Source: Streptomyces sp. NBC_01264 (GTDB taxonomy: Bacteria; Actinomycetota; Actinomycetes; Streptomycetales; Streptomycetaceae). From it: a DNA stretch of 64,000 nucleotides. The translations under genes were made by a program, and so were the position numbers. The notes beneath the pieces are model-generated. The model was not told the origin of the DNA. It was given only the letters and a program-made list of their open reading frames with translations, and searched no databases. Below are positions 115-19,830 of this stretch, in pieces; within the stretch, counting starts at the first letter, position 1, and every line of letters begins with the position of its first letter. The stretch spans positions 3,720,001 to 3,784,000 of the forward strand of contig NZ_JAPEOX010000001.1 of NCBI RefSeq assembly GCF_026340675.1, read 5' to 3'.

Positions 115-1359
115 TCACACCCCGTCGGCGAGTGTCTTCTCCCAGGCCGCGGCCAGCCGGGAGACGCCTTCCCGGCGCTGCGCGCCGTCCAGGGAGGCGA
201 AGGACAGCCGCAGGACCCGCGAGCCGTCCTCCTCGATGCAGAAGGGCGTGCCGGGCACGATGGCGACGCCCTGCGCCAGCGCGTGCGCGTACAGCGCGTC
301 GGAGCCCACCCGGGGGTCGGTCAGCCGGCACCAGAAGAAGAGCCCGCCGCGCGGCCGTTCGAAGTCCAGCCAGGGCAGTCGTTCGCGCAGCAGCGTCTCC
401 ATGGCGCGGGCCCGGCCGCCGTACAGCGTGCGCAGGCCCGCCAGATGGGCCGGCAGGAACTCCGGGTCGCCGAGCAGGTCGGCGAGGAGGTACTGGCCGA
501 AGGTGTTGGTCTGCAGGTCCCCGCACTGCTTGGCGGCGACCAGTTCCCCGATCAGCTCGGCGGGGGCGACCAGACCGGCCACCCGCAGCCCCGGGCAGAC
601 CGTCTTGGAGAGGCTCATCAGCCGGACCACGCGCCCGCTGTGGACGTCGGTGGACGGCAGCCGGCTCCCCTCGAAGGCCAGGTCCCCGTACGGGTCGTCC
701 TCGACGACGAGGAAGCCGAACCGTTCGGCCAGCGCGGCCAGGTGGCGGCGCCGCTCCTCGGAGAGCACGGCCCCGGTCGGGTTGTGGAAGTGCGGTACGA
801 CGTAGACGAGTTTGGGCCGGGCCCCGGCGAGGAGGCGCTGCTCCAGTACGTCGGTGCGCATCCCGTCCGCGTCGGCGGGGACCGGCAGCAGCCGGGCTCC
901 GGCCCGCCGGAAGACCTGGACGGCGCCCAGGTAGCTCGGGTCGTCCAGGGCCACCTCGTCGCCCTCGTCGACGAGGGTCCGCGCGACGAGGTCCAGGCCC
1001 TGCTGACTGCCCGCGGTGACCATCACCCGGTCGGGGCCGACGGGGGCCCCGGTCGCGCTCGCCCGGGCCGCGATCACCTCCCGCATCGGGGCGATGCCGT
1101 CCGTGGGGGCGTACTGGAGCGCCCGTGCGGCGGACCCGCCCGACCCTCCCGCCCCGGCGAACAGCCGGTCGGTGGCCTCGGCGAGCCGGGCCACGGGGAA
1201 GCTGTCGGGGGCCGGGATCCCGCCGGCCATCGAGAGCACCCCCGGGGCGGCGGCCGCCGCCAGGATCCCGCTCACCGCGTCGGAGCGGCCCCAGCCGGTG
1301 CGGCGGGCGAGCAGGCTCCCGATGGCGCCGGGCGCCGGTGCCTGCGGTACGGCACTCAC
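115..1359 (-). CDS. PLP-dependent fold-type I aminotransferase, LysN/MocR-catalytic-domain-like
   Basis: A 414-residue aminotransferase without the N-terminal GntR domain of true MocR regulators, so it resembles stand-alone 2-aminoadipate aminotransferases (LysN type). Visible motifs are YVVPHFHNPTG, the EDDPYGDL stretch and the PLP lysine in SLSKTVCPGLRVAG. The C-terminal RPRGGLFFW and arginine-containing VLRLSF segments fit the substrate carboxylate site of the family. The GTG start at 1357-1359 overlaps the stop of the MFS gene as GTGA, indicating translational coupling. As the second aminotransferase of the operon it probably adds or removes the alpha-amino group of a pathway amino acid. 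The substrate is unknown. Confidence 0.85.
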   Translation of the reverse strand: MSAVPQAPAPGAIGSLLARRTGWGRSDAVSGILAAAAAPGVLSMAGGIPAPDSFPVARLAEATDRLFAGAGGSGGSAARALQYAPTDGIAPMREVIAARASATGAPVGPDRVMVTAGSQQGLDLVARTLVDEGDEVALDDPSYLGAVQVFRRAGARLLPVPADADGMRTDVLEQRLLAGARPKLVYVVPHFHNPTGAVLSEERRRHLAALAERFGFLVVEDDPYGDLAFEGSRLPSTDVHSGRVVRLMSLSKTVCPGLRVAGLVAPAELIGELVAAKQCGDLQTNTFGQYLLADLLGDPEFLPAHLAGLRTLYGGRARAMETLLRERLPWLDFERPRGGLFFWCRLTDPRVGSDALYAHALAQGVAIVPGTPFCIEEDGSRVLRLSFASLDGAQRREGVSRLAAAWEKTLADGV

Positions 1360-2705
1360 CTCGCGTCCGCCTTCCGGGGGACCCGGGTTTCCGGGGCGAT
1401 CTGGGGCGGGAACTCCTTCAGCCGCCACACCGGTGATTTCAGGACGCCCAGGACCGCGGTCAGGAAGAGCGCGGCGGTGACGAACAGCGTTTCCCGCAGC
1501 CCGATGAGGTCGCCGAGCCAGCCGCCCAGCAGGGCGCCGAGCGGGAGCGTCCCCCAGGAGATGAAGCGGTACCCGGCGTTCATCCGCCCCAGGAGGTGGT
1601 CCGGGGTCATGGACTGGCGCAGGCTGATGATGTGGATGTTGGCCATGGTGCCGCCGGCTCCGATCAGGCCGAAGGCGGCGACGAACAGGGTCAGCGAGAG
1701 CGCCCCGCCGTTCGCCGGGGCCGCCGGGATGGCCACGGGGGCCAGGCAGCACAGCAGCAGCGCCGCCAGGACGGCGTAGCCGAGTCCGATCCGGCGCTTG
1801 AGCCACTGCGCGAGCATCGAGCCGGCCAGCGAGCCCACCGCCCCGGTGCCCAGCAGCAGGCCGATGCCGCCGGGCGAGATGCCGAGCGTGCGGGCCGCGT
1901 AGAGCACGAACACCGTCTGGAGGGACATCCAGCACAGGTTGTACAGCCCGGACTGGAGGGCGCAGGCCCGCAGGTGGGCGCTGTCCCAGATGATCCGGAT
2001 GCCCTCGGCGATGCTGGTGCGGATCCCGGTCCGCTCCTGCTGGGGCACCGGCTCCGGCTCGGCGCGCCGTACCGCGAGCAGGGTGAGCACGGAGACGAGG
2101 TACGAGACCCCGTTGATCAGCAGCGCGTAGGGGGCGGTGACCCAGCCGATGAGCAGACCGGCCAGTCCGGGCCCGCCGATCTGGGCCAGCGAACTGGTGC
2201 CCTGGAGCTTGCTGTTGCCCTCCACCAGGTGCTGCTTGCCGACCAGGGTCGGCAGGTAGGACTGGTAGGAGACGTCGAAGACCACCGTGAGGGTGCCCAC
2301 GAGCAGCGCGGCGACGTACACGTGCTCGATGCGCAGCAGGTCGAGCACGGCCAGCAGCGGCACCGCGCCGACCAGCAGCGCCCGCCCCACGTTGGCCATG
2401 ATCATCAGGGGCCTGCGCCGCACCCGGTCGACCCAGACGCCGACCAGGAGGGTGACCATCAGGAAGGGGGCGTAGGAGGCGGCGTTGACGAAGCCCACCT
2501 GGGAGGAGCTGGCGTCGAGCGTCAGTACCGCGGTGAGCGGCAGCGCCAGGGTGGTGACCTGGGCCCCGACCTGTGAAATGGCCTCCCCAGACCAGAACTT
2601 GAGGAACTCCGGGTCCCGCCAGAGCGTGGCGGGTGCGGCGGCGGCGGAGGGTGCGGCGACCGTCTCCTGCACCGATTCGGCGGCTCCGTTCCCGATGTCG
2701 GTCAC
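1356..2705 (-). CDS. MFS transporter (multidrug/EntS-like exporter)
   Basis: A 449-residue membrane protein with about 12 hydrophobic segments. After a cytoplasmic N-terminal tail comes WRDPEFLKFWSGEAISQVG, typical of the MFS subgroup of macrolide/enterobactin exporters, and a loop WVDRVRRRPLMI after the second helix, which is the MFS signature position. The GTG start overlaps the stop of the ATP-grasp fusion gene (GTGA at 2702-2705), and its own stop overlaps the next gene in the same way. This places it firmly in the Region A operon as the likely product exporter or self-resistance pump. The substrate is inferred from context only. Confidence 0.85.
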   Translation of the reverse strand: MTDIGNGAAESVQETVAAPSAAAAPATLWRDPEFLKFWSGEAISQVGAQVTTLALPLTAVLTLDASSSQVGFVNAASYAPFLMVTLLVGVWVDRVRRRPLMIMANVGRALLVGAVPLLAVLDLLRIEHVYVAALLVGTLTVVFDVSYQSYLPTLVGKQHLVEGNSKLQGTSSLAQIGGPGLAGLLIGWVTAPYALLINGVSYLVSVLTLLAVRRAEPEPVPQQERTGIRTSIAEGIRIIWDSAHLRACALQSGLYNLCWMSLQTVFVLYAARTLGISPGGIGLLLGTGAVGSLAGSMLAQWLKRRIGLGYAVLAALLLCCLAPVAIPAAPANGGALSLTLFVAAFGLIGAGGTMANIHIISLRQSMTPDHLLGRMNAGYRFISWGTLPLGALLGGWLGDLIGLRETLFVTAALFLTAVLGVLKSPVWRLKEFPPQIAPETRVPRKADAR

Positions 2706-5411: not shown

Positions 5412-6692
5412 TCAGCCCTCGTCGGCGGCCGGGGCGCCGACCGGTACGCAGGTCAGCCGGAAGGAGTGCGCGGACTCGGTGATGGCCGCCTCGACCTCCC
5501 GGGTGGTGGCCCCGCGGAAGCGGAAGCGGGTGCCGACGTGCTCGTAGCCGCTGATCGCCGGGGCCGTGGAGCCGACCGGGGTGTGCTTGACGGCGTACGG
5601 GAGGCGGCCCGGCGCGGGTTCCCGTACCCAGCCGGCCGCTTCGACGCGGCAGGGGGCGGGGACCGGGAGCGGGAGCAGCAGGTAGCCGCCGACCTCGCCG
5701 GTCTTGAGCGGCGGCAGGACCGGGGTCAGGCCGAGCTGGATGTCCACGGCGGCGGCCATCAGGTCGATTCCGTGGACGTCGCGCCAGGTGAAGGGGATCT
5801 CCCCGCCGCCCACCCGGGCCCCGCACTCCAGAAAGACCAGCGCGGGCCCGCCGTCCGGCGCCGGGGTGACGAAGGCCTCCAGGTGGAAGACCCAGGGCCG
5901 GGCGCCGCCGAGCGCGCGGCCGACCGCGGCGGCGAAGGCCTCCACCGCCTCCAGCAGGGCGGGGTCGTCCTCCTCGACCGAGCCGAGCCAGGTCCCCCGG
6001 GTGAAGTCGGCGCAGGTGCCGCCCACATAGCGCGAGACGGTCCAGCTGCCGAGCGAAGCCCCTTCCCACAGGCCGTCGATGTGCAGGATCGGCCCGACCA
6101 CGTAGCGCTGGACGAGGTGCGGCTCGGCCGCCAGCGCTGCGTCGAGCCGGCCGTCCGGGCCGTTCAGCGCGGCCAGTTCGGCGGCGGAGTCGATCCGGAC
6201 CACGCCCCGGCTGGCGGTGCCGCGGTGCGGTTTGACCACCAGCGGCCAGCCGTGTACCCCGCCGAAGGCGAGCACGGCGGCCGGGTCCGGCGCGGGGGCG
6301 AAGGCGGGCACCGGCAGGCCGGCGGCCTCGGCCGTACGGCACATGGTCAGCTTGTCGCGGAACACGGCCAGTTCGGCGGTGTCCTGGCCGGGGATCGCGA
6401 ACTCCTCGCGGATCAGCGCGGCCGTGTCCAGGTCCCCCTCGTTGAGGGCGATCAGCCGGGCCGGGGCGCCGAAGCGGGCCACGAGCCCGGTGACGGCCGC
6501 GCGGACGGCGGGCAGGTCGTCGGTCAGTGCGACGGTGGTGACCGCGGCGGCGGTCCGGGGTAACGAGGCGCGGCCGAGCCCGGTGCTCACGTAGGTCACG
6601 TGGGCGGCGCCGTGGTCGATGTAGTCGGCGTAGTGCGCGTGGGTGTCCCGCCAGCGGTGCAGGACGACGATGTGCGGCCGGTCGGTGCTCAT
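5412..6692 (-). CDS. ATP-grasp domain protein (carboxylate-amine ligase)
   Basis: A 426-residue ATP-grasp enzyme beginning RPHIVVLHRW. It has the lysine strand WPLVVKPHRGTASRGVV, a flexible loop PHLVQRYVVGP, and the metal-binding segment VFLECGARVGGGEIPFTW. The family joins a carboxylate (through an acylphosphate) to an amine using ATP, and in metabolite clusters it makes dipeptide-type amides. It shares its N-terminal 'HIVVLxRW' start and overall plan with the ATP-grasp gene at 55,686-56,927. ATG and the amidohydrolase stop overlap as ATGA, so the two genes are translationally coupled. Its place beside the double ATP-grasp gene suggests successive ligations on one scaffold. Confidence 0.85.
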   Translation of the reverse strand: MSTDRPHIVVLHRWRDTHAHYADYIDHGAAHVTYVSTGLGRASLPRTAAAVTTVALTDDLPAVRAAVTGLVARFGAPARLIALNEGDLDTAALIREEFAIPGQDTAELAVFRDKLTMCRTAEAAGLPVPAFAPAPDPAAVLAFGGVHGWPLVVKPHRGTASRGVVRIDSAAELAALNGPDGRLDAALAAEPHLVQRYVVGPILHIDGLWEGASLGSWTVSRYVGGTCADFTRGTWLGSVEEDDPALLEAVEAFAAAVGRALGGARPWVFHLEAFVTPAPDGGPALVFLECGARVGGGEIPFTWRDVHGIDLMAAAVDIQLGLTPVLPPLKTGEVGGYLLLPLPVPAPCRVEAAGWVREPAPGRLPYAVKHTPVGSTAPAISGYEHVGTRFRFRGATTREVEAAITESAHSFRLTCVPVGAPAADEG

Positions 6693-8011: not shown

Positions 8012-8064
8012 CGGGGTGTTCGTGACCGGCGTGTCAGTGACCGGGGTGTTCGTGACCGGCGTGT
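8012..8064. repeat. Exact 23-base direct repeat at the 3' end of the MHS transporter gene
   Basis: The same 23 bases occur at 8012-8034 and 8042-8064, a 30-base period that keeps the reading frame. The copy at 8042-8064 encodes part of the histidine-rich tail. The other lies just past the stop codon (8034-8036), so the present stop sits at the junction of two formerly in-frame units. Confidence 0.7.
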
Positions 8065-9413
8065 TCGTGTACGGCCCATGAGGCGGCCAGCGCCGCCGCG
8101 GCGGTCAGTGCGGGCCACCACGGCAGCCAGGCGCCCAGACCGGCCGACCTCAGGAGCTCCGCGAGCATCGGGAAGGTGCCGCCGAACAGGCTGATCGCGG
8201 CCGCCGTGGGCAGGCCCACGGCGACGGCGCGCACCGCGGGCGGGAACAGCTGCCCGGCGAAGACGTTGCTCACCGCGAGCGGCAGGCCCAGCAGGAAGAG
8301 CAGCACCACGGTGACCAGTTGGACGGGGACCCGTCCGGAGTCCATGGCCAGCAGCAGCGGTACGGTGCCCAGCGCGAGCCCGGCGAAGCCGAGCCGCAGG
8401 ACGGGCAACGCCCCGAACCGGTCGGCGGCCCTGCCCCCGCCGAGCATGGCCGCGAGGAGCGCCACCATGCCCAGGAGCAGTGCGGCGGAGGTCTCCTCCT
8501 TGCCGGCGGCCCCGGCGCTCTCGGCGTACGAGGGGAAGTCGACGGTGACGAAGTAGAAGGTGGTGGTGGCCCCGGAGGTGATGGCGAACACCACGGCGAG
8601 CCGCCCGAGATGGGCCCGCAGCACCGGCCAGGGGCTCGCGGCCCTCGCCGGCGGTGCCGCCCCGGTCTCCTCCCCCGCCTCCGCGGGCGGGGCCGCTCCC
8701 TGCGCGGCCCCGCCCGCGGTGGCGGCCGTGAAGACGGCGCACTCCGCCGCGCCGCGCCGGATCCACAGGGCGGTCAGCCCGAGCAGTCCGCCGAAGACGA
8801 AGCCGTAGCGCCAGGCGCCGTCCTCGACCCCGCTCTCCCCGAACACCGCGAGCAGGACGTTCATGACGATGAAGGAGAGCGCGCTGCCCAGCACCACGCC
8901 CCCGTAGGAGACGGCGCTGTAAAGGTAGCGGCGCCCGGCCGGTGCGGTCTCGGTGACGTACGCGGCCACACTCGGGTTCTCCGCCCCGACCGACAGGCCC
9001 TGCACCAGCCGGGCCCCGACCACCAGGAGCGGAGCCGCCAGGCCGATGGAGGCGTAGCCGGGGACGACGGCCAGGAGCAGGGAGCCGGCGGCGATCAGGC
9101 CGACCGTGAGGGTCAGTCCGTAGCGCCGGCCGCGGGTGTCGGTGAGGCGGCCGATGAGCACGCTGCCCAGTGGGCGGACCAGGAAGCCGAGGGCGAAGCC
9201 GAGGTAGGCGGCGATGAGTCGGGTGGTGGGCGAGGTGCCGGGGAACAGCGCCTCGGCGAAGTAGGGGGCGAGGATCCCGTAGATGGTCCAGTCGTAGGCC
9301 TCGACGACCGAGCCGACGGTGGCGGCGGCCAGTTCCCCGCGGGGCCGCCGGGCCGGTGCGGCGGCGGGGGTCGCCACCACCGCCGCACGGCCCGCTTGTT
9401 CAGTGCTGGTCAT
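8034..9413 (-). CDS. MHS-type (metabolite:H+ symporter) MFS transporter
   Basis: A 459-residue transporter of the ProP/ShiA/KgtP group. It shows the GSVVEAYDWTIYGILAPYFA start of the first helix, the RPLGSVLIGRLTDTRGRRYG loop between helices 2 and 3, and GLSVGAENPSVAAYVTETAP in helix 5. The family imports small carboxylates, betaines or osmolytes. It overlaps the end of the preceding gene by 14 bases. The C-terminus is a histidine-rich tail HEHAGHEHPGH encoded by a duplicated 23-base segment. Together with the other MFS gene the operon has two different transporters, perhaps one for precursor uptake and one for export. Confidence 0.85.
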   Translation of the reverse strand: MTSTEQAGRAAVVATPAAAPARRPRGELAAATVGSVVEAYDWTIYGILAPYFAEALFPGTSPTTRLIAAYLGFALGFLVRPLGSVLIGRLTDTRGRRYGLTLTVGLIAAGSLLLAVVPGYASIGLAAPLLVVGARLVQGLSVGAENPSVAAYVTETAPAGRRYLYSAVSYGGVVLGSALSFIVMNVLLAVFGESGVEDGAWRYGFVFGGLLGLTALWIRRGAAECAVFTAATAGGAAQGAAPPAEAGEETGAAPPARAASPWPVLRAHLGRLAVVFAITSGATTTFYFVTVDFPSYAESAGAAGKEETSAALLLGMVALLAAMLGGGRAADRFGALPVLRLGFAGLALGTVPLLLAMDSGRVPVQLVTVVLLFLLGLPLAVSNVFAGQLFPPAVRAVAVGLPTAAAISLFGGTFPMLAELLRSAGLGAWLPWWPALTAAAALAASWAVHEHAGHEHPGH

Positions 9414-10113
9414 CCGTTACTCCGTAGACCCTGATCAATGAGGTGTCCTGCCCGGGGAAGGGCACGGCGTGCAGCCGGACCCCGGTCGCCGGGAGGGCGT
9501 CCAGGCCGGTCAGGCCCGTGAGGGCGGGCAGGCCGGCGGCGGCGAGCGCCGCCGCCACCGGCCCGTCGCCCTCACGGCTGTCGGTCGCCACGAGGAGCGC
9601 GCCCTGCCCGGCGAGCAGGTCCACCGCGTCCTCGGTGAGGTACGGGCCGGCCGCGCGGCCGGTCTGCACGACGACGGCGTGCCCCGCGAGGTCGAAGGGG
9701 GCCAGCGCGAGCCGGTCGGCGACCGGCGCTCCGGCTCCGAGGAGCCGGACCAGGACCACGGGAAGGTCCACCAGGCCGGCGAGGCCCGGGGTGGCGCCCG
9801 CACCCGTCGGCCAGTCGGCCCGGGTCGCGGGGCCGGTCAGGTCCGTCGTGGTGCGGCCCGCACCGGCGGCGCCGGTGTCGCGGGAGCCCTTGTGGGGCTC
9901 CTGGAGCAGCTCCCGGCGGGTGATCTTCGTACTGCCGACCATCAGCAGTCCGAGGTGGCGGACGATCAGTTCGCCCAGGTCCCCGTCGGTGATGTCGTCA
10001 CCGGGGATGTCCAGGCGGAACCCCTGCATCTGCAGGGCGCCTCCGTTGCTGAAGACGACCTCCGCGTCGAAGTCGACCCGCCACTCGGCGCAGTTGTTCG
10101 TTCCCGTGGTCAT
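9400..10113 (-). CDS. Two-part protein with the C-terminal half of a cyclase (kynurenine formamidase-like) domain
   Basis: A 237-residue protein. Residues 1 to about 80 (WRVDFDAEVVFSNGGALQMQ through EPHKGSRD) form a compact domain that I cannot name. Residues from about 105 match the second half of the metal-dependent cyclase/kynurenine formamidase family: GLVDLPVVLVRL, HAVVVQTG, GPYLTEDAVDLLAGQGALLV and LTGLDALPATGVRL. The family's HxGTHxDxP metal motif, which should precede this part, is absent, so the protein is probably not a hydrolase of the usual kind. AAGGA precedes the ATG. It lies 72 bases after the aminotransferase gene; a small hairpin (10169-10187) overlaps that stop codon. Confidence 0.6.
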   Translation of the reverse strand: MTTGTNNCAEWRVDFDAEVVFSNGGALQMQGFRLDIPGDDITDGDLGELIVRHLGLLMVGSTKITRRELLQEPHKGSRDTGAAGAGRTTTDLTGPATRADWPTGAGATPGLAGLVDLPVVLVRLLGAGAPVADRLALAPFDLAGHAVVVQTGRAAGPYLTEDAVDLLAGQGALLVATDSREGDGPVAAALAAAGLPALTGLTGLDALPATGVRLHAVPFPGQDTSLIRVYGVTDDQH

Positions 10114-10185: not shown

Positions 10186-11520
10186 TCAGGCGCAGTCGAT
10201 CAGAGCCTTCTCCAGCGCCGCCGCCATCTCGTGGATCTCCTCGTCGGTGATCACCAGTGGCGGGAGCAGCCGGAGCACGGCGCCGTGCCGCCCGCCGCTC
10301 TCCAGCAGCAGCCCGTGGTCCAGGCAGGCGCGCTTGACGCGTTTGGCCCGGGCCCCGTCGGCGGGAAGCGAACCGAGGGAATCGGCGCGGCCCGCGGGGT
10401 CCACCATCTCGATGCCCCACATCAGCCCCCGGCCGCGGACCTGGCCGATCTCGGGGCGAGCGGCGGCCAGCCGGCCGAGCAGGTCGGCGAGCAACCTGCC
10501 TTTGGCGGCGGCCTTTTCGATCAGCCCCTCGGACTCGGTGACCCGCATGGCGGCGAGTCCCGCGACCAGGGCGACCTGGTTGCCGCGGAAGGTGCCCGCG
10601 TGGGCTCCGGGGGTCCAGGCGTCGTACTTGCGGTGGTAGAGCAGCAGCGACAGCGGGAAGCCGCCGCCGGCCGCCTTGGACACGAGGACGGCGTCCGGCT
10701 CGATCCCGGACTCCTCGAAGGCCCACATGGTGCCGGTGCGTCCGAAGCCCGCCTGGATCTCGTCCAGGACCAGCGGGATGTCCAGCCGGGCGGTGATCTC
10801 CCGCAGCCCGCGCAGCCAGGCCGCCGGCGCGGGGATGACCCCGCCCTCGCCCTGGACCGCTTCGACGAAGACCGCGGCCGGTGTGGTGATGCCGCTCTCC
10901 GGGTCGGTGAGCAGCCGCTCGATGTAGGTCAGGCCGGCCCGGACGCCCGCCTCGCCGCCGATGCCGAAGGGGCAGCGGTAGTCGTAGGGATAGGGCAGGT
11001 GGTGCACGTCCGGCATGAGGGAGGGCACGGACTCCTTGGCGCCCAGGTTGCCGGTGAGGGCGAGGGCGCCCGCCGTCATCCCGTGGTAGGCCCCGTGGAA
11101 GGAGATCACCGTTCGGCGGCCGGTGGCGATCTTGAGCAGCTTGATCGCGGCCTCGGTGGCGTCGGTGCCCGCCGGTCCGCAGAACTGGGTCTTGAAGGTG
11201 TCCGCCATGGTGCCCGGCAGCCGTGCGTACAGCGCCCGGAGGTACTCGTACTTGGCCGGGGTGGTCAGGTCCAGTGCCTGCTGGACCTGACCGGAGGTGA
11301 GGTACTCCCCCACCGCGGCCAGGACGTCCGGGTGGTTGTGCCCCAGGGCGAGGGTGCCCGCCGCGGCGAGGCAGTCCAGGTACTCGCGGCCGTGCCCGTC
11401 GCGGATGCGTGCGCCGTGGCCCTCCGCGAGGAGCCGGCCGAAGGCGTTGGCGTAGGTCCGGGCGCCCGATTCGCGCGCCTCGACGAAGGTGTACATCTCG
11501 TCCGGCGTGAGGGTGGTCAC
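10186..11520 (-). CDS. Class III aminotransferase, diaminobutyrate--2-oxoglutarate type
   Basis: A 444-residue class III PLP enzyme. Landmarks are the cofactor-phosphate region FCGPAGTDATEAAIKLLK (about 113-130), FHGAYHGMTAG, the aspartate in VLDEIQAGFGRTG (D253), the PLP lysine in VSKAAGGGFP (K282) and GTFRGNQ. This pattern fits the EctB/Dat group, which converts aspartate 4-semialdehyde and glutamate to 2,4-diaminobutyrate, although related enzymes use other omega-amino acids. The GTG start overlaps the hypF-like stop as GTGA. Ectoine synthase and DABA acetyltransferase (EctC/EctA) homologues are not obvious here, so ectoine is unlikely as the product. Region E carries a second enzyme of this class. 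Confidence 0.85.
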   Translation of the reverse strand: MTTLTPDEMYTFVEARESGARTYANAFGRLLAEGHGARIRDGHGREYLDCLAAAGTLALGHNHPDVLAAVGEYLTSGQVQQALDLTTPAKYEYLRALYARLPGTMADTFKTQFCGPAGTDATEAAIKLLKIATGRRTVISFHGAYHGMTAGALALTGNLGAKESVPSLMPDVHHLPYPYDYRCPFGIGGEAGVRAGLTYIERLLTDPESGITTPAAVFVEAVQGEGGVIPAPAAWLRGLREITARLDIPLVLDEIQAGFGRTGTMWAFEESGIEPDAVLVSKAAGGGFPLSLLLYHRKYDAWTPGAHAGTFRGNQVALVAGLAAMRVTESEGLIEKAAAKGRLLADLLGRLAAARPEIGQVRGRGLMWGIEMVDPAGRADSLGSLPADGARAKRVKRACLDHGLLLESGGRHGAVLRLLPPLVITDEEIHEMAAALEKALIDCA

Positions 11521-13964
11521 GTCGTCACTCCTCTTCCATTCCTCAGGTGTGAGCGGGCGTCGGCGACCATGACCTGGCCGAGGGCGATCCCGCCGTCATT
11601 GGTCGGGACGAGCCGGTGGACAAAGGTGTCGAAACCGTCGGCGGTCAGCCCGGTCAGACAGTTGAGCAGCAGGAACTCGTTGAGGAACACGCCTCCGGAG
11701 AGGGCGACCTGGTTGACCCCGGTCTCCTCCCGCAGCGCCCTGCAGCGCTCGCGGACCATGTCGACGACGGCCGTGTGGAACCGGCGGCTGATCCGCTCCA
11801 CGGGCAGTCCGGCGGCGATGTCGGCGGCCATGGCCCGGATCACGGGCCGCGGGTCCACCTCGGTCAGCCCGTCCGCCTCGTAGGCCCCGAAGCGGTACGA
11901 GGCCTGCGGCTCGCGGGTGGCGTCGCGGTCGAGCAGCCCCTCCAGCTCGATCGGGCCCTGGGCCTCGTACTCGGCCGTGGCGCAGACCCCGGCGAGGGCG
12001 GCGGCCCCGTCGAAGAGGCGGCCCATGCTGGAGGTGGGCGGGGAGTTGATCCCGCGGGCCGCCATCGTCGCGAAGACCCGCCGGCGCTGCCCGTCGAGGA
12101 CGGCGAGGGCGGGGAAGCCCGCCAGCGCCCGGTCCCCGTCCCCGTCGAAGGCGTCCAGGGCGAGTGCGTACCCGGTGCGGATGGGTTCGCGCACGGCCTG
12201 GTCCCCGCCGATCAGCGGCAGGCCGCGCATCCGGCCGACCCGGCGGAAGGCGGCGTAGTCCCCCAGGAGGAACTCCCCGCCCCAGACCGTGCCGTCCTCG
12301 CCGTAGCCGAAGCCGTCGAAGATCACTCCGAGGGTGGTGCCGCTCACGTGGTTCTCCGCCATGCAGGAGGCCATGTGGGCGTGGTGGTGCTGGACTTCCA
12401 CGGTGGGCAGCGCCGGGCCGGTGCCGTCGTCGTCGAGGGCGGCCCGGGTGGAGCGGAACTGCGGATGCATGTCGTGCGCCGTGGCCTCGGGCTTCAGGGC
12501 GTACAGCTGCGCCAGGTGCCGGGCGGTGCGGTGGTGCGCGGCGAAGGTCTCGTCGTTCTTGAGGTCGCCGACGTGCTGGCTGAGGAAGACCTGGGAGCCG
12601 TTGGTGAGGGCGACGGTCGTCTTCAGTTCGGCGCCGAGGGCGACCACGGGGGCCAGCTCACGGCCGACGTCCACGGGGTAGGGGGCGTAGCCGCGGGCCC
12701 GGCGGATGAACTGGAGCAGCGGTTCGTCGAGTTCGGGGTGGTCGGAGAGGCGCACCACGGAGTCGTCCACCCGGATCTCGATGTCGCGGTCGTGGTAGAG
12801 GATCACGTCCGCGATCTCGAAGAGCTGCTCCAGGGCCTCCTCGTTGCGGTAGGCGATGGGGTAGCCGGAGATGTTGCCGCTGGTGGCGACGAGCGCTTCG
12901 AGGCCGGGCTCGTCCAGCAGCAGGTGGTGGTGGGGTGCCGAGGGCAGCATGATCCCCAGGTTGGGGTTGCGCGGGGCCACGGACTCGGGGAGGGAGCCCG
13001 CGCGCTTGCGGGCCAGCAGGATGGGCCGGGCCGGCGAGCGCAGGACGTCGATCTCCGCCTCGGAGAGCTCCACCAGGCCCTGTGCGGTGACGAGGTCGCG
13101 GACCATCACCGCGAACGGCTTGGAGTCGCGGCGCTTGCGGCCGCGCAGCAGGGCCACGGCCTCGGCGTTGGTCGCGTCCACCACGAGGTGGAAGCCGCCG
13201 ACGCTCTTCATGGCCGCGATCCCGCCGTCGGCCAGCACCCGGGCCGCCCGCAGGAGGGCCTCGTCCCCTTCGGCCGTGCCCCCCTCGCGGTCCCGGAGCA
13301 GCAGCCGGGGGCCGCAGTCCGGGCACGCGTTGGGCTGCGCGTGGTAGCGCCGGTCCATCGGGTCCTCGTACTCGCCCTTGCAGTCCGGGCACATGGTGAA
13401 GGTGGCCATGGTGGTCATCGGACGGTCGTACGGCAGGTCCTGGATGATGGAGTAACGGGGCCCGCAGTTGGTGCAGTTGATGAAGGGGTAGCGGTGCCGG
13501 CGGTCCTTCGGGTCGCGAAGTTCCGCCTGGCAGTCGCCGCATACGTGGGTGTCCGCCGGGAGCAGCGCGGACCGGGCTCCGGTGTGCTCGCTGTGCACGA
13601 TGGTGAACGGGCCCGCGGGCACGGTGCCGCGGTCCAGTCCCCGGGTCGGCCGGACCTCGTCCACCCGGGCGAGTTCGGGGGCGCGTCCACTGAGGCCCGC
13701 CGCGAACTCCTCCAGGGCGGCGACCGGTCCGGACGCCTCCACCAGCACGCCTTCGGGGTCGTTGCGAACCCAGCCTGAGAGGCCGAGTTCACGGGCCAGC
13801 TTGTAGACGAACGGCCGGTAGCCGACGCCCTGGACCACGCCGGTGACGCGGATGCGCCACTCCTCGACAGCGCTGCCGGCGCTACTTGCGCGGCCCGCGT
13901 TGCTGTCGGCGCTGCCGGTCCCGGCGGGCCGCTCCGTGACGGTCTGCTGCTCGGTGCTGCTCAT
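11517..13964 (-). CDS. hypF: HypF-like carbamoyltransferase
   Basis: A full-length 815-residue HypF. Domain order: acylphosphatase-like domain (about 37-125, VVQGVGYRPF); two zinc motifs (C142/C145/C164/C167 and C192/C195/C214/C217); a YrdC-like domain (KSVGGFHLVVDA, RKRRDSKPFAVMV); and a Kae1-like domain with VEVQHHHAHMAS, FDGFGYGEDGTVWGGE, LSGGVFLNE and NDGGIALGQ. HypF turns carbamoyl phosphate into a carbamoyl-adenylate and passes the carbamoyl group to the C-terminal cysteine of HypE. The catalytic motifs look complete. The ATG at 13962-13964 follows GAGGAA. hypE lies directly upstream in the same operon. No hypA, hypB, hypC, hypD or hydrogenase gene is in the window. Confidence 0.9.
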   Translation of the reverse strand: MSSTEQQTVTERPAGTGSADSNAGRASSAGSAVEEWRIRVTGVVQGVGYRPFVYKLARELGLSGWVRNDPEGVLVEASGPVAALEEFAAGLSGRAPELARVDEVRPTRGLDRGTVPAGPFTIVHSEHTGARSALLPADTHVCGDCQAELRDPKDRRHRYPFINCTNCGPRYSIIQDLPYDRPMTTMATFTMCPDCKGEYEDPMDRRYHAQPNACPDCGPRLLLRDREGGTAEGDEALLRAARVLADGGIAAMKSVGGFHLVVDATNAEAVALLRGRKRRDSKPFAVMVRDLVTAQGLVELSEAEIDVLRSPARPILLARKRAGSLPESVAPRNPNLGIMLPSAPHHHLLLDEPGLEALVATSGNISGYPIAYRNEEALEQLFEIADVILYHDRDIEIRVDDSVVRLSDHPELDEPLLQFIRRARGYAPYPVDVGRELAPVVALGAELKTTVALTNGSQVFLSQHVGDLKNDETFAAHHRTARHLAQLYALKPEATAHDMHPQFRSTRAALDDDGTGPALPTVEVQHHHAHMASCMAENHVSGTTLGVIFDGFGYGEDGTVWGGEFLLGDYAAFRRVGRMRGLPLIGGDQAVREPIRTGYALALDAFDGDGDRALAGFPALAVLDGQRRRVFATMAARGINSPPTSSMGRLFDGAAALAGVCATAEYEAQGPIELEGLLDRDATREPQASYRFGAYEADGLTEVDPRPVIRAMAADIAAGLPVERISRRFHTAVVDMVRERCRALREETGVNQVALSGGVFLNEFLLLNCLTGLTADGFDTFVHRLVPTNDGGIALGQVMVADARSHLRNGRGVTT

Positions 13965-13987
13965 GGCGGTTTCCTCGGTCCCTTGTC

Positions 13988-15013
13988 TCAGCAGAGCCGG
14001 GGAAGTTCGGCGCCGAGGAGTTCCTCCAGCTGGGTCTCGCGGCCGTCCTTGTCGCGCAGCAGCACCAGACCTTCGGTTTCCTCGGAGATCTCGCCGATGG
14101 TGACCGCGTGCTTCCCGTAGGGCAGCGAGCGCAGGGCCGCCAGTACGTCGGCCTCCGCCTCCGGGGCCACGAAGACCGCGAGGCAGCCCTCGTTGGCGCA
14201 GTGCAGCGGGTTGATGCCGAGCATGTCCGCGGCCATCGCCGTCTCGTGCTGGATGGGCAGGTCGTCCTGGGCGACGCGGATGGTGCGGCCGAGCTTGTGG
14301 GCGTACTCGTGGAGCACGGCGGTCAGGCCGCCGCGGGTGACGTCGCGCATCGAGCGGACGGCGCCCGCCGCGACGTTCGACAGGACCGTGTCGACCAGGC
14401 CGTTGAGGGGCGCGCAGTCGCTGTCCACCCGCTGCTCGAAGCCGAGGCCCTCGCGGATGGAGAGCAGGTGCACCGTGTGGTTGCCGATGGGGCCGCTGAG
14501 GATCACCTTGTCGCCGGGGCGCACGTCGGTCATGGTGAGCGGCTCGCGCTCGAAGACCCCGACGCCCGCGGTGTTCAGGTAGATCTGGTCGGCCTCGCCC
14601 GTGCGGACCACCTTGGTGTCGCCGCCGACGATCTGTACGCCGGCCTCGCGGGCGGTGTCGCGGATCGACTCCAGGACCTGGACCAGCTTGGGGACGGGGA
14701 GCCCGGTCTCCAGGATCATGCCGAGGGTGAGGTACTTGGGCCGGGCGCCGGCGACGGCCAGGTCGTTGACGGTGCCGCAGACCGCGATCTTCCCGATGTC
14801 CCCGTTGCCGAAGAACGGCGGGTCGATCACGAAGGAGTCGGTGGTCATCGCGATGCGGTCGCCCTCGATCTTGAGGACCGCGCTGTCCTCCATGATGCCG
14901 ACGTACACGTCGCCGAGGGTGGCCGCGATGAGCTGGACCAGGTCCTGGCTGAGCTTCGCGCCGGTGCCGTGGTCGAGGACGATGAATTCGGTGGGATCCA
15001 CGCTCGTGGTCAT
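13988..15013 (-). CDS. hypE: HypE-like carbamoyl dehydratase
   Basis: A 341-residue PurM/HypE-type ATPase. It ends ELPRLC, and the terminal cysteine is the residue that HypF carbamoylates and HypE dehydrates to a protein thiocyanate, the source of cyanide in NiFe hydrogenase. Other landmarks are GPIGNHTVHLLSIREG, MRDVTRGGL, VGGDTKVV and the DDPPF-like VIDPPFFGNGDIGKIAV region. The length and the intact C-terminal cysteine argue for a working enzyme. It is separated from hypF by 23 bases and follows AGGAAGG at its ATG. Whether the cyano group goes to a metal centre or into a metabolite cannot be read from sequence. Confidence 0.92.
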   Translation of the reverse strand: MTTSVDPTEFIVLDHGTGAKLSQDLVQLIAATLGDVYVGIMEDSAVLKIEGDRIAMTTDSFVIDPPFFGNGDIGKIAVCGTVNDLAVAGARPKYLTLGMILETGLPVPKLVQVLESIRDTAREAGVQIVGGDTKVVRTGEADQIYLNTAGVGVFEREPLTMTDVRPGDKVILSGPIGNHTVHLLSIREGLGFEQRVDSDCAPLNGLVDTVLSNVAAGAVRSMRDVTRGGLTAVLHEYAHKLGRTIRVAQDDLPIQHETAMAADMLGINPLHCANEGCLAVFVAPEAEADVLAALRSLPYGKHAVTIGEISEETEGLVLLRDKDGRETQLEELLGAELPRLC

Positions 15014-15056: not shown

Positions 15057-15641
15057 TCACGGGGTCTTGATGTTCTTGCGGGGCAGCCCGCCCTCGGCGT
15101 CGAGGACCTTGATGACGTCGGCGGAGTCGCTCACCGTGGCGCAGTAGCCCTCCAGCCAGTCCAGGGCGCGCTGCTTGTCGTCCAGGCGGGCCGAGACGAC
15201 GCAGTCGGAGGGGACCCAGATGTTGTAGCCGCGGAAGAAGGCGTCGGCGGCGGTGGTCTGGACGCATATCTGCGTCTGCATGCCGGTGATCAGCACGGTG
15301 TCCACGCCGAGGGCCTGGAGGCGGTCGTGCAGGTCGGTCTCGTAGAAGCCCGAGTCCTTGCTCTTCTCCATGACGACGTCCTCGGGGGCCAGGAAGGCCT
15401 CGATGATGTCGGCGCCGTGGGTGCCGCGCTGGACCGGGAGGTAGCCGTCGTAGCGCTCGGCGTTCGGGTCGTCCGGGTCGTTGACCAGCTGCAGGTGGAA
15501 GACGTGGTGGCCGCGGGTGCGCATCTCGTCGAGGAAGCCGGTGAAGTGCGGGGTCGCGGCCTCGACGGCGGCGACGCGCTCCGGGTTCTTCTCGACCAGT
15601 TCGTACTGGAGGTCGTTGGTCAGGACGGCGATCTTGGACAT
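15057..15641 (-). CDS. Isochorismatase-family cysteine hydrolase
   Basis: A 194-residue protein of the isochorismatase/nicotinamidase superfamily. The catalytic triad is visible: D10 in VLTNDLQ, K93 in VMEKSKDSGF and C126 in GMQTQICVQTTAADAFFRGY. Members hydrolyse amides, carbamoyl groups (N-carbamoylsarcosine, ureidoacrylate) or vinyl ethers. Next to hypEF, a carbamoyl or amide substrate is attractive but unproven. The gene lies 43 bases upstream of hypE on the same strand, and AAGGG precedes the ATG. Confidence 0.85.
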   Translation of the reverse strand: MSKIAVLTNDLQYELVEKNPERVAAVEAATPHFTGFLDEMRTRGHHVFHLQLVNDPDDPNAERYDGYLPVQRGTHGADIIEAFLAPEDVVMEKSKDSGFYETDLHDRLQALGVDTVLITGMQTQICVQTTAADAFFRGYNIWVPSDCVVSARLDDKQRALDWLEGYCATVSDSADVIKVLDAEGGLPRKNIKTP

Positions 15642-16718: not shown

Positions 16719-17522
16719 TCAGACCGAAGCGGTGGCCTTCGTCTGCAGGTTGGTCTGTACGGCGGCGGCGGGCGCGGCCTGGGTCAGCAGCGAGGCGTCC
16801 GCGCCGGCACCGAGCACGGTGGCCGCGTAGACCTCGACGAAGTAGGACACGAACAGCGAGTTGATCTTGATGAGGTGGTCGACGAAGCGCTCCTCGTCGG
16901 CCTCGTCCTTGATGACGCGCATGATCAGGTTCCAGACCATGTCGACGTGGTCGTCGTCGTCGTCGAGGGCCAGGTGGGCGCGGGCGCCCTTGGTCTTGTC
17001 GGCGCCGACGTGCTGCTCCATGATGTCGAGCCAGTCGGGCTGGGTCTTGCCCGCGATGTACTCCAGGTAGAACCCGCTGATCATCGCGGCCAGCGGGCCC
17101 TCCGTGGCCATCGTGTAGTAGAAGTAGCCGTTGAGGAGTTCGGTGGCGAAGGTCGGACGGATCGCGTAGATCTCCTCGTCCGTCATGCCGACCTTGTGCA
17201 GGTCGCCGGCGAACATGCGGTCGTGGCGGCCCTCCTCCGCGCCGTACAGGCCCCACTCCTTGCAGAGCTGCGGGTCCCTGGTGGCCCAGTAGTTGGCGAC
17301 GAGCGGGTCGACGGCACGCTTGAGGCCGATCCGGATCATCGTCTCGACGTTGTGCCGCTTGTACAGCTCGAGGTCGAACTTCTCCTTGTCGAGCATCCCG
17401 TCGGCGCCCGCGCTGCGCTCGTAGAAGTCCCGCTCGAACTTCAGCAGGAGCTCGTCGACGCGCCCCCGGAACTCAGGGCGCTGCAGGTTGGAGTACGTGT
17501 TGTACGACTTACTTCGAGGCAT
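16719..17522 (-). CDS. Haem-oxygenase-like diiron oxidase family protein
   Basis: A 267-residue all-helical protein with a haem-oxygenase-like non-haem diiron appearance. Candidate iron ligands are E and H in YGAEEGRHDRMF, the glutamate in YYTMATEGPLAAM, and histidine/aspartate residues in MEQHVGADKTKGARAHLA and LDDDDDHVDMVW. Characterised relatives in metabolite clusters carry out N-oxygenation, C-C cleavage of amino acids or desaturation (SznF, BesC, UndA families). It is the first gene of the operon, divergent from the LuxR-type regulator, and so is likely an early or committed step. The exact ligand set would need a structural model. Confidence 0.7.
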   Translation of the reverse strand: MPRSKSYNTYSNLQRPEFRGRVDELLLKFERDFYERSAGADGMLDKEKFDLELYKRHNVETMIRIGLKRAVDPLVANYWATRDPQLCKEWGLYGAEEGRHDRMFAGDLHKVGMTDEEIYAIRPTFATELLNGYFYYTMATEGPLAAMISGFYLEYIAGKTQPDWLDIMEQHVGADKTKGARAHLALDDDDDHVDMVWNLIMRVIKDEADEERFVDHLIKINSLFVSYFVEVYAATVLGAGADASLLTQAAPAAAVQTNLQTKATASV

Positions 17523-17797
17523 CTCATCCCCAGCCGAGATCGTTGACTACCTGACCCGGACCAGTGGTATCGGCGATGTTCGCCGCACCACTCGTCGACG
17601 GGGCGAGGAAGACGGGCACCGCGAAATCTGCCGCAATGGCGATGAGGAAACTCGCGATACGTGGCATGCTTGCCTGCCCCTCAAGATGTCTTGCGGTCCG
17701 GATCAGCTTCGGCATCATCCTGTCCGTTCGGCCACATCCGGAGCCATCCCTTTCTGGGATCATGTTGCCGCTGGCGAAAACATGACAGGGGGATGAA
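17523..17797. promoter_or_regulatory. Divergent promoter region between the Region A operon and its regulator
   Basis: A 275-base intergenic stretch from which the diiron gene is transcribed leftwards and the LuxR-type regulator rightwards. Near the regulator lies a 7-base inverted repeat, tcatgtt (17760-17766) and aacatga (17779-17785), with 12 bases between, just upstream of the AGGGGG ribosome-binding site. It is a candidate autoregulatory operator. No clear sigma-70 boxes were identified. Confidence 0.45.
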
Positions 17798-18861: not shown

Positions 18862-19830
18862 TCAGCGGCCGCCCACCGCCGGAAGCGGAACCGCCGTCCC
18901 GGCGCCGGGCGCGGGGGCGGAGCCGGGGTCCGACACGGGGTCGGCCACCGCCGCGACGGGCGCCGCGGCCCGGGGCTTCGAGGGGACCAGCGAGGTCACC
19001 GCCACCCCGCCGACCAGCAGGACGGCCGCCACCCAGCGCAGCCCGCTCACGTCCTCGCCCAGCACCAGCGCCGCCGAGCTCATCCCGAAGACCGGGACCA
19101 GCAGCGAGAAGGGCGCCACCGAGGAAGCGGGATAGGTGCGCAGCAGGAACCCCCACGCCCCGAAGCCGAACACCGTGGTGATCCAGGCGAGGTACACGAT
19201 GACCCCGACCCCGCTCCAGTCGAGCCCGCGCAGCGCCGCGAGGTCCCGCTCCGGGCCCTCCAGCAGCAGCGACAGCCCCGCCAGCGGCAGCACCGGCACC
19301 ACGCTCACCCACACCATGAAGTTCAGCGCGTCGGGCGGGGACGCCTTGCGGGTCAGCACGTTGGACACGCCCCAGCACGCGGCGGCCGCGATCACCAGGG
19401 TGAAGCCCAGCACCGGCCCTGAGGCGCCCTCGTCCACGGCGGCCACCGCGATCCCCGCGAAGGCCACGGCCATGCCCGCGATCCGCAGCCGCCCGGGCCG
19501 CTCCTTGAGCACGACCGCCGCGAACACGGCCGTGAACACCGCCTGCACCTGGAGGACCAGCGAGGACAGCCCGGCCGGCATCCCGCGGTCCATCCCGGTG
19601 AACAGCAGCCCGAACTTCGCGATCCCGAGGACCGCGCCGACCCCGATGATCCACTTCCAGGCCACCTTGGGGCGCCCGACGAAGAACACCGCGGGCAGGG
19701 CGGCGACCAGGAAGCGCAGGGCGGACAGCAGCAGCGGAGGGAAGGATCCGAGGCCGAACTCGATGACGACGAAGTTGAAACCCCATACCGCGGCCACGAG
19801 GACCGCCAGGGCGATGTGAATGGGTCGCAT
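18862..19830 (-). CDS. EamA/DMT-family transporter
   Basis: A 322-residue membrane protein with ten predicted helices in two EamA repeats. The first opens HIALAVLVAAVWGFNFVVIE and the second includes AAAACWGVSNVLTRK, the repeat signature. The C-terminal 45 residues are an Ala/Pro-rich tail. EamA-type carriers export amino-acid metabolites. It is divergent from a LysR gene that likely regulates it, with 108 bases between the starts. The substrate is unknown. Confidence 0.85.
   Translation of the reverse strand: MRPIHIALAVLVAAVWGFNFVVIEFGLGSFPPLLLSALRFLVAALPAVFFVGRPKVAWKWIIGVGAVLGIAKFGLLFTGMDRGMPAGLSSLVLQVQAVFTAVFAAVVLKERPGRLRIAGMAVAFAGIAVAAVDEGASGPVLGFTLVIAAAACWGVSNVLTRKASPPDALNFMVWVSVVPVLPLAGLSLLLEGPERDLAALRGLDWSGVGVIVYLAWITTVFGFGAWGFLLRTYPASSVAPFSLLVPVFGMSSAALVLGEDVSGLRWVAAVLLVGGVAVTSLVPSKPRAAAPVAAVADPVSDPGSAPAPGAGTAVPLPAVGGR

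What the first reader, a model, noticed from the sequence alone, without database searches (positions are those of the whole stretch)
11517..15013. HypE and HypF in an amino-acid-type biosynthetic operon with no hydrogenase genes
Both proteins look catalytically complete: HypF has its acylphosphatase, zinc, YrdC and Kae1-like parts, and HypE ends in the essential cysteine (PRLC). In known biology this pair makes thiocyanate on HypE as the source of the CN ligand of NiFe hydrogenase and needs HypC/HypD to receive it. Here the neighbours are ATP-grasp ligases, aminotransferases, a diiron oxidase, a GNAT, hydrolases and exporters, and no hypA-D or hydrogenase gene is within the window. The pair may deliver a carbamoyl or cyano group to a small molecule, giving a nitrile, thiocyanate or carbamoyl product.
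Basis: partly seen in the sequence, partly recalled or inferred. Interest (0 to 1): 0.87.

Follow-up and report, generated by a model that had tools for sequence, protein, structure and literature searches.

The report
Hydrogenase-independent HypEF module in biosynthetic operon
Two enzymes known for making the cyanide of hydrogenases occur here, together with a cysteine enzyme that always seems to travel with them, as a portable gene set inside antibiotic-type operons, often in bacteria without any hydrogenase, which suggests a way to put a cyano or carbamoyl group on small molecules.

Summary
The window encodes a full-length HypF (11517-13964, -) and HypE (13988-15013, -, ending PRLC) in a co-directional operon with no other hyp gene. 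The genome has a separate NiFe-hydrogenase locus with its own hypF, hypD and hypE. Window-type HypE forms a group apart from hydrogenase-type copies (62 v 25 rows, 100/100); the 62 end PRLC, the 27 compared end PRIC.

In 391 Streptomycetales genomes ICH and this HypE occur in exactly the same 15; among plasmid records the same 10 carry both. HypD is absent from 30 of 55 genome entries with the module, and those 30 show no hydrogenase large subunit.

Best reading: ICH-HypE-HypF is a hydrogenase-independent module delivering a C1-N1 group, probably cyanyl; here it may act on a diaminobutyrate-type amino acid before ATP-grasp ligation and oxidation by a heme-oxygenase-like enzyme. Hydrogenase independence is strongly supported; chemistry and product are inferred. 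HypEF beside an ATP-grasp gene was noted in print in 2020 (PMC7794033) without ICH or mechanism.

The parts
13988..15013 (-). hypE (carbamoyl dehydratase-like), 341 aa, C-terminus PRLC
   Evidence: TIGR02124 421 bits; K134, E275 and C341 shared with hydrogenase-type HypE
11517..13964 (-). hypF (carbamoyltransferase), 815 aa
   Evidence: TIGR00143 706.7 bits; all domains
15057..15641 (-). ICH: isochorismatase-fold cysteine hydrolase, third member of the module; Cys126 invariant in 62 of 62 aligned rows
   Evidence: PF00857 E 2.6e-34; co-occurrence (41, 111); residues
15937..16518 (-). GNAT acetyltransferase, 193 aa
   Evidence: PF00583 27.1 bits, cut-off 20.7
16719..17522 (-). HDO: heme-oxygenase-like diiron oxidase, relative of MboA
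   Evidence: solved MboA 9ypi E 2.6e-19; Pfam Haem_oxygenas_2 below cut-off
17524..17667 (-). 47-aa peptide gene ending NDLGWG, 1 bp before the HDO gene
   Evidence: C-terminus conserved in the window and 8 window-type loci
10186..11520 (-). class III aminotransferase of the diaminobutyrate--2-oxoglutarate family
   Evidence: TIGR00709 513.8 bits, cut-off 401.6
9400..10113 (-). 237-aa protein of unknown family, conserved in window-type loci
   Evidence: no Pfam or NCBIfam match; alignment of 7
8034..9413 (-). MFS transporter
   Evidence: MFS_1 81.1 bits
6689..7996 (-). M20 amidohydrolase/deacylase-like
   Evidence: TIGR01891 252 bits, cut-off 153.75; Peptidase_M20
5412..6692 (-). ATP-grasp protein B (weak family match)
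   Evidence: ATP-grasp_4 below cut-off; PRK02186 47 bits
2702..5323 (-). ATP-grasp protein A, 873 aa; ligase domain in the N-terminal half
   Evidence: ATP-grasp_4 66.4 bits; C-terminal half without a Pfam match
1356..2693 (-). second MFS transporter (start not fixed)
   Evidence: MFS_1 130.3 bits
115..1360 (-). class I/II aminotransferase (start estimated)
   Evidence: Aminotran_1_2 110.2 bits
17798..18799 (+). divergent regulator with LuxR-type HTH
   Evidence: GerE 26.1 bits; present in the 8 window-type loci
18862..19830 (-). EamA-type exporter, probably belonging to the cluster
   Evidence: EamA 106.5 bits; matched in 7 of the 8 window-type loci, not in L017

Best explanation
ICH-HypE-HypF is a three-gene, hydrogenase-independent module that supplies an activated one-carbon, one-nitrogen group to specialised metabolism. 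[quoted passage not shown] HypE dehydrates it with ATP to bound (iso)thiocyanate (inferred from conserved sequence and the known hydrogenase system). In place of HypC/HypD the cysteine protein ICH receives or directs the group through its invariant Cys126 and passes it to an acceptor (inferred). In this operon the acceptor is most likely the side-chain amine of a 2,4-diaminobutyrate-type amino acid made by the class III aminotransferase, with GNAT and the M20 enzyme adding and removing an N-acetyl group; ATP-grasp ligases then build a small peptide, the HDO oxidises it and carriers export it (all inferred). My odds by step: hydrogenase independence 0.95; ICH-HypE-HypF one functional unit 0.95; cyanyl rather than carbamoyl delivered 0.6; ICH as acceptor/transferase 0.45; diaminobutyrate-type acceptor here 0.4.
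For: Own hydrogenase locus elsewhere with its own hypF, hypD, hypE. HypE and HypF split from hydrogenase-type copies in trees. ICH and clade HypE in exactly the same 15 of 391 Streptomycetales genomes, adjacent in all 15, and in the same 10 plasmid records; ICH matched in 41 of 42 clade loci and 0 of 9 hydrogenase-type loci. HypD absent from 30 of 55 genome entries, with no hydrogenase large subunit in those 30. Catalytic Lys134, Glu275 and Cys341 of HypE kept. Diaminobutyrate aminotransferase homologs near the module in 16 of 42 loci. In Paraburkholderia phymatum nodules ectB, GNAT, ICH, hypE and hypF of the homologous locus all fall in a nifA mutant (PMC8305402).
Against: No biochemical test; acceptor and product unknown. 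26 of 42 loci show no diaminobutyrate aminotransferase homolog, so that acceptor cannot be general. 25 of 55 genome entries do have HypD. In two Paraburkholderia plasmids the module lies a few kb from a hydrogenase operon, weak hydrogenase matches lie near it in a third (L052), and in P. phymatum the hydrogenase genes fall in the same nifA mutant. Seven Nocardia ICH rows lack D10 and K93, so ICH chemistry may not be uniform. L051 has no ICH match in the fetched DNA.
Confidence: 0.5

Rival explanations
1. Carbamoyl, not cyanyl, is delivered: HypE-S-CO-NH2 is the donor and ICH acts as a transcarbamoylase, giving a ureido product.
For: ICH's nearest NCBIfam models are biuret amidohydrolase and RutB, enzymes of carbamoyl/ureido groups, both far below cut-off. 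Mangotoxin, a comparable HDO/ATP-grasp peptide, carries a ureido side chain (PMC13185094).
Against: HypE residues recalled as needed for dehydration are kept in both kinds. Diaminobutyrate is carbamoylated elsewhere by one simple transcarbamylase (PMC6022934 passages), so HypEF would be a costly detour.
Confidence: 0.25
2. ICH is a protective or recycling hydrolase that removes stray carbamoyl or cyano products; the real acceptor enzyme differs from cluster to cluster.
For: Isochorismatase-family fold of hydrolases; the other genes of the cluster types differ widely.
Against: Seven Nocardia ICH rows have lost D10 and K93 but kept Cys126; no other gene family is shared by all cluster types in the clustering.
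Confidence: 0.25
3. A spare maturation pair: the window HypEF serves the genome's hydrogenase.
For: Both families are true HypE/HypF; the genome has a hydrogenase locus; in Paraburkholderia the module lies beside a hydrogenase operon.
Against: Separate clade; hydrogenase locus has its own pair; module in genomes without HypD or hydrogenase large subunit.
Confidence: 0.03
4. The 47-aa peptide is a RiPP precursor and the operon, HypEF included, modifies it.
For: Conserved C-terminus NDLGWG with a diverging N-terminal part in the window and 8 window-type loci. A 2020 RiPP survey lists a hypEF/ATP-grasp cluster among its candidates (PMC7794033).
Against: The N-terminal part looks like a secretion signal (by eye), which suits a signalling peptide for the divergent regulator. 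The motif was found in none of the other loci fetched, and the enterobacterial operons list no peptide gene.
Confidence: 0.1

Closest known systems
HypE/HypF of [NiFe]-hydrogenase maturation
   Same: Same two families over their cut-offs, same domains and C-terminal cysteine; carbamoyl phosphate to HypE-bound thiocyanate is the known chemistry (PMC12134894 passages).
   Different: Separate clade, PRLC not PRIC, ICH as constant neighbour, no HypD nearby, hosts without hydrogenase.
hypE/hypF homologs in an ATP-grasp gene cluster, decRiPPter survey (PMC7794033)
   Same: hypE and hypF with an ATP-grasp gene and no other hyp gene in Streptomyces, new function suggested (passage and part 1 of section 7 read). 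Probably the same or a related cluster.
   Different: Presented as a candidate RiPP family; the passages read mention no ICH partner, clade, hydrogenase-free hosts or mechanism.
Mangotoxin cluster (MboA-F)
   Same: HDO plus two ATP-grasp ligases making a small peptide (PMC13185094, abstract, passages, sections 7, 8, 11); window HDO related to MboA.
   Different: No HypEF or ICH in the parts read; the window HDO keeps one of three residues that bind the Arg side chain (my mapping).
Class III O-carbamoyltransferases (TobZ, GdmN) and diaminobutyrate transcarbamylase
   Same: Use carbamoyl phosphate in antibiotic pathways (PMC9633730 and PMC6022934 passages).
   Different: Single enzymes without the HypE step; HypF carries acylphosphatase and zinc-finger parts.

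Membership tests
HypE (TIGR02124) | score over the curated cut-off | tested here: met
   421 v 251.6 bits
HypE (TIGR02124) | C-terminal cysteine and catalytic Lys/Glu | tested here: met
   C341, K134, E275; the role of Lys/Glu is recalled, the paper was not held
HypF (TIGR00143) | score over cut-off with acylphosphatase, zinc, YrdC and Kae1-like parts | tested here: met
   706.7 v 466.1 bits; domains
[NiFe]-hydrogenase maturation system | HypC/HypD acceptor complex encoded with the pair | tested here: not met
   only HypD of the genome lies 2.9 Mb away; 0 of 42 clade loci have HypD in the fetched DNA; HypC not searched
[NiFe]-hydrogenase maturation system | a hydrogenase in the host | tested here: not met
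   present in this genome but not needed for the module: no large subunit in 30 HypD-less genome entries
[NiFe]-hydrogenase maturation system | groups with hydrogenase-linked copies | tested here: not met
   separate side of a branch, 100/100 for HypE, SH-aLRT 98 for HypF
Isochorismatase-like cysteine hydrolases (PF00857) | fold and Asp-Lys-Cys triad | tested here: met
   D10, K93, C126 in the window protein; 7 Nocardia rows keep only the Cys
Mangotoxin-type HDO/ATP-grasp cluster | HDO acting on an Arg-containing peptide | tested here: inconclusive
   related HDO, active-site Tyr/His/Asp kept, 1 of 3 Arg-binding residues kept
RiPP cluster | precursor peptide whose core is modified | tested here: inconclusive
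   conserved 45-49 aa peptide in window-type loci; modification untested
Cyanyl or carbamoyl transfer module | transfer of the group to a small molecule | not testable with these tools
   needs purified proteins or metabolite analysis

The most novel reading that the evidence does not exclude
A general enzymatic cyanation system: HypE-bound thiocyanate serves as an electrophilic CN donor and ICH Cys126 relays it to amines, thiols or carbanions of small molecules, making nitriles, cyanamides or cyanamide-derived cyclic guanidines in actinobacteria, on rhizobial symbiosis plasmids and in enterobacterial islands. It would be a further route to such groups beside oxime or amide dehydration and HDO-type rearrangement.
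Probability: 0.35. Interest if true: 0.95.

Novelty: new variant of a known kind. Interest (0 to 1): 0.85.

Why it matters
HypE and HypF are read as hydrogenase proteins; hypE is annotated so in all eight annotated module records read here. A separate group with its own partner, in hosts without hydrogenase, would mean that the cell's cyanyl-making machinery was recruited for small-molecule chemistry. That gives a possible route to nitrile or cyanamide groups, a genome-mining handle (ICH beside a HypE ending PRLC), a warning for annotation (HypEF alone is no proof of hydrogen metabolism), and a compact five-gene operon in E. coli and Citrobacter on which to test it.

Tried and rejected
Tree of ICH against the genome's other isochorismatase-family genes: uninformative (paralog branches 8-10 changes per site); co-occurrence was used instead. 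Structure prediction of the 237-aa unknown protein: never accepted, machine busy. PADLOC, PHROGs and Rfam were not run. A small peptide gene upstream of ICH in other cluster types: conserved short frames appeared only in the Nocardia and Paraburkholderia groups and none was convincing. Linking a cluster to a known compound: the ten literature searches gave none; they cover openly licensed papers only and I saw listings except where passages are named. One member only of each neighbour family was scanned for type II, NRPS, Nocardia and S. clavuligerus-like clusters.

Rows dropped before counts. HypE trees: L001, L002, L004, L005, L006 (own-genome duplicates, a fragment, a distant relative), L046 and L049 (broken frames), L078 (match without both ends, frame not ending in Cys), L101 (no C-terminal Cys). 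'PRLC' is of the 62 kept rows and also defined the label; these include identical pairs (81 different rows of 87). HypF tree: loci L062-L090 (short), L001-L005, L046, L049 and rows outside 600-1000 aa. ICH residue counts: 62 of 64 extracted rows (L004 and one row outside the length range dropped); at least five genomes entered twice (G144/G429, G273/G406, G307/G414 with HypD; G165/G404, G249/G395 without), leaving 28 of at most 50 without HypD; L019's genome was not held.
Full report
What is there. On the minus strand, from about 17.7 kb down to 2.7 kb and probably to 0.1 kb, lies a co-directional run: a 47-aa peptide gene, HDO, GNAT, ICH, hypE, hypF, class III aminotransferase, a 237-aa unknown, MFS, M20 amidohydrolase, two ATP-grasp genes, a second MFS and a class I/II aminotransferase. 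Three gene pairs overlap (hypF/aminotransferase, unknown/MFS, M20/ATP-grasp B). HypF has every expected domain and HypE ends in PRLC; both align with solved relatives over most of their length.

The same genome has an ordinary system. HypD occurs once (C1:846720), next to a second HypF (845262), a second HypE (847921, 44% identical) and a NiFe large subunit (836926-838482). The window is C1:3720001-3784000.

A separate group. One scan of named genomes with the window HypE gave 51 loci. The first 42 (L011-L052, 55-97% identical) and the last 9 (L053-L061, 42-45%) differ in kind: all 42 have a HypF match and none a HypD match in the fetched DNA, while all 9 have HypD and none has ICH. In 391 Streptomycetales genomes 230 have HypE at E <= 1e-40; 15 are 53-100% identical to the window copy and the next is 47%. 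A tree of 87 HypE rows puts the 62 PRLC rows on one side of a branch, 100/100; with E. coli and Cupriavidus added it is 62 v 27, SH-aLRT 100, and HypF splits the same way, 48 v 12 rows, SH-aLRT 98. The program warned that long branches meet at the HypE split; the hydrogenase side is thinly sampled and the root is not inferred. The 62 rows end PRLC and the 27 others PRIC. The abstract of PMC12130793, seen in a listing, calls PRIC conserved. K134, E275 and C341 are shared by both kinds; that this Lys and Glu serve dehydration is recalled, the source was not held.

The third gene. ICH is matched in 41 of the 42 loci; L051 has none in the fetched DNA and its genome was not searched for it. Searching the same 391 genomes with ICH at E <= 1e-30 returns exactly the 15 genomes with the clade HypE, 47-167 bp from hypE in 12 and about 1 kb away on the other strand in 3. 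Among 72,556 plasmid records ICH at E <= 1e-25 returns 10 records, the same 10 that are listed with HypE at 54% or more. Cys126 is invariant in 62 of 62 ICH rows. D10 and K93 are kept in 55 of 62; the exceptions are seven Nocardia loci with G10 and R93, while Nocardia locus L018 keeps both. The cysteine looks essential; the full hydrolytic triad may not be.

No hydrogenase needed. Of 55 genome entries carrying the clade, 30 have no HypD, six of them rated at least 99% complete; without five visible duplicates it is 28 of at most 50. None of the 30 shows a hydrogenase large subunit: 16 have a PF00374 match, two over the cut-off, but all lie within profile positions 1-69 of 508, whereas the true one of this genome covers positions 1-82 and 151-508. 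Against this, 25 entries do have HypD. In two Paraburkholderia plasmids the module lies a few kb from a hydrogenase operon, which in P. phymatum has its own hypC, D, E, F, A and B, and P. diazotrophica L052 has weak hydrogenase matches near it.

Neighbourhoods. Window type: Streptomyces L011-L017 and L049 (L015 ends early). Type II: nine loci with ICH-HypE-HypF and two ATP-grasp genes; six of nine have a decarboxylase family whose scanned member matches a diaminobutyrate decarboxylase model below cut-off, and seven of nine a family whose scanned member is weakly like GntB. NRPS type: L095, annotated as such, and L033, L035-L037 and L051, which share a family of large proteins that I did not scan; four have an SHMT/transaldolase-like gene, three a peptidase C26 family gene. 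S. clavuligerus type with an arginase-family gene and a DUF3865 protein. L041 with an amino-acid kinase, a diaminobutyrate aminotransferase homolog over the model's cut-off and methylaspartate mutase. A Nocardia type. R. leguminosarum with ABC and DMT transporter genes. A compact LysR / ICH-hypE-hypF-HAD-MFS operon on Citrobacter and Salmonella plasmids; the ICH-hypE-hypF part is on the chromosome of 14 of 5,426 E. coli genomes, and in the one read the operon is the same and lies near tRNA-Asn and integrase fragments. A homolog of the window's class III aminotransferase is matched in 16 of 42 loci, GNAT in 12 and HDO in 9, so these are local additions to the module.

Expression. In P. phymatum the order is ectB - GNAT - hypothetical - ICH - hypE - hypF. 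Published nodule RNA-seq (PMC8305402; passages and part 1 of the tables section read) lists ectB (log2 -7.58), GNAT (-8.06), a hypothetical gene (-5.51), ICH as cysteine hydrolase (-6.29), hypE (-5.17) and hypF (-7.47) as reduced in a nifA mutant, with aspartate semialdehyde and 2,4-diaminobutanoate also reduced; the hydrogenase hypF (-4.74) and other hydrogenase genes fall too, and the authors speak of the hyp genes as hydrogenase-related. Upstream of GNAT in three Paraburkholderia loci a short frame resembles the C-terminal end of the window HDO (by eye). An HDO with two ATP-grasp genes, related to the window's (HDO 29%, ATP-grasp 33% and 35%), lies elsewhere on the P. phymatum plasmid next to nifA. 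The rhizobial locus looks like a rearranged relative of the window operon; but two of those three genes rise in the nifA mutant, so the loci are not simply co-regulated.

How it most likely works. HypF and HypE chemistry up to thiocyanate is established for hydrogenase (PMC12134894 passages; the abstract of PMC4506123, argues for isothiocyanate) and is inferred here from conservation. Since ICH goes with HypE in all but one case and HypD is lacking nearby, ICH is the natural candidate to replace HypCD: a cysteine enzyme whose best NCBIfam models, all below cut-off, act on carbamoyl or ureido groups. The aminotransferase (TIGR00709 over cut-off), GNAT and M20 enzyme suggest an N-acetyl-diaminobutyrate-type acceptor in this operon. 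A direct diaminobutyrate transcarbamylase is known (PMC6022934 passages), so the costlier HypEF route argues for a cyano group. The end of the pathway resembles mangotoxin, where two ATP-grasp ligases build a tripeptide that an HDO desaturates (PMC13185094 abstract, passages, sections 7, 8, 11). The window HDO is a relative: by my mapping it keeps the residues matching Tyr82, His89 and Asp90 of MboA, but of the three Arg contacts only Asp61 (Asn57 is Lys68, Asp139 is Gly150), so its substrate probably differs.

Novelty. That hypE and hypF occur with an ATP-grasp gene and without other hyp genes is in print (PMC7794033), as one candidate RiPP family with a suggested new function. I found no paper on the ICH partner, the separate clade, the hydrogenase-free hosts or the chemistry, which cover openly licensed papers only; prior work elsewhere is possible. 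I rate it a new variant of a known kind, of high interest because it makes a chemical hypothesis testable with three purified proteins.

Noticed in passing
window 17524-17667 (-): A 47-aa peptide gene with a secretion-signal-like N-terminus and the C-terminus NDLGWG sits 1 bp before the HDO gene; the C-terminal motif is conserved in all 8 window-type loci, once in this genome and in no other fetched locus. It could be a signalling peptide for the divergent regulator or a RiPP precursor.
   Followed up: partly
L119 7001-12904; L092 6393-12263; L096 4345-10259: A self-contained ICH-hypE-hypF-HAD-MFS operon with a divergent LysR gene on E. coli, Citrobacter and Salmonella replicons; its ICH-hypE-hypF part is in 14 of 5,426 E. 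coli genomes.
   Followed up: partly
L091 8063-15365: The rhizobial copy of the module on symbiosis plasmid pBPHY02 is NifA-dependent in nodules in published data and its hyp genes are read there as hydrogenase-related.
   Followed up: partly
L098 5890-9140: HDO plus two ATP-grasp genes between LysR genes, next to nifA and nodB on pBPHY02, related to the window's HDO and ATP-grasp proteins.
   Followed up: partly
L101 9842-10861: A HypE-like protein (49% over 84% of the query) without the C-terminal cysteine (ends PRLA), annotated AIR synthase-related, in a polyketide-type neighbourhood without an annotated hypF.
   Followed up: no
L026, L028, L029, L030, L031, L034, L020 (ICH genes): Seven Nocardia ICH proteins keep Cys126 but have G10 and R93 in place of Asp and Lys.
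   Followed up: no
L046 and L049: hypE (both) and hypF (L046, in pieces) reading frames are broken in these drafts; decay or sequencing error was not examined.
   Followed up: no
window 2702-4036 (-): The C-terminal half of ATP-grasp protein A matches no Pfam family; by eye it resembles a second ligase domain.
   Followed up: no
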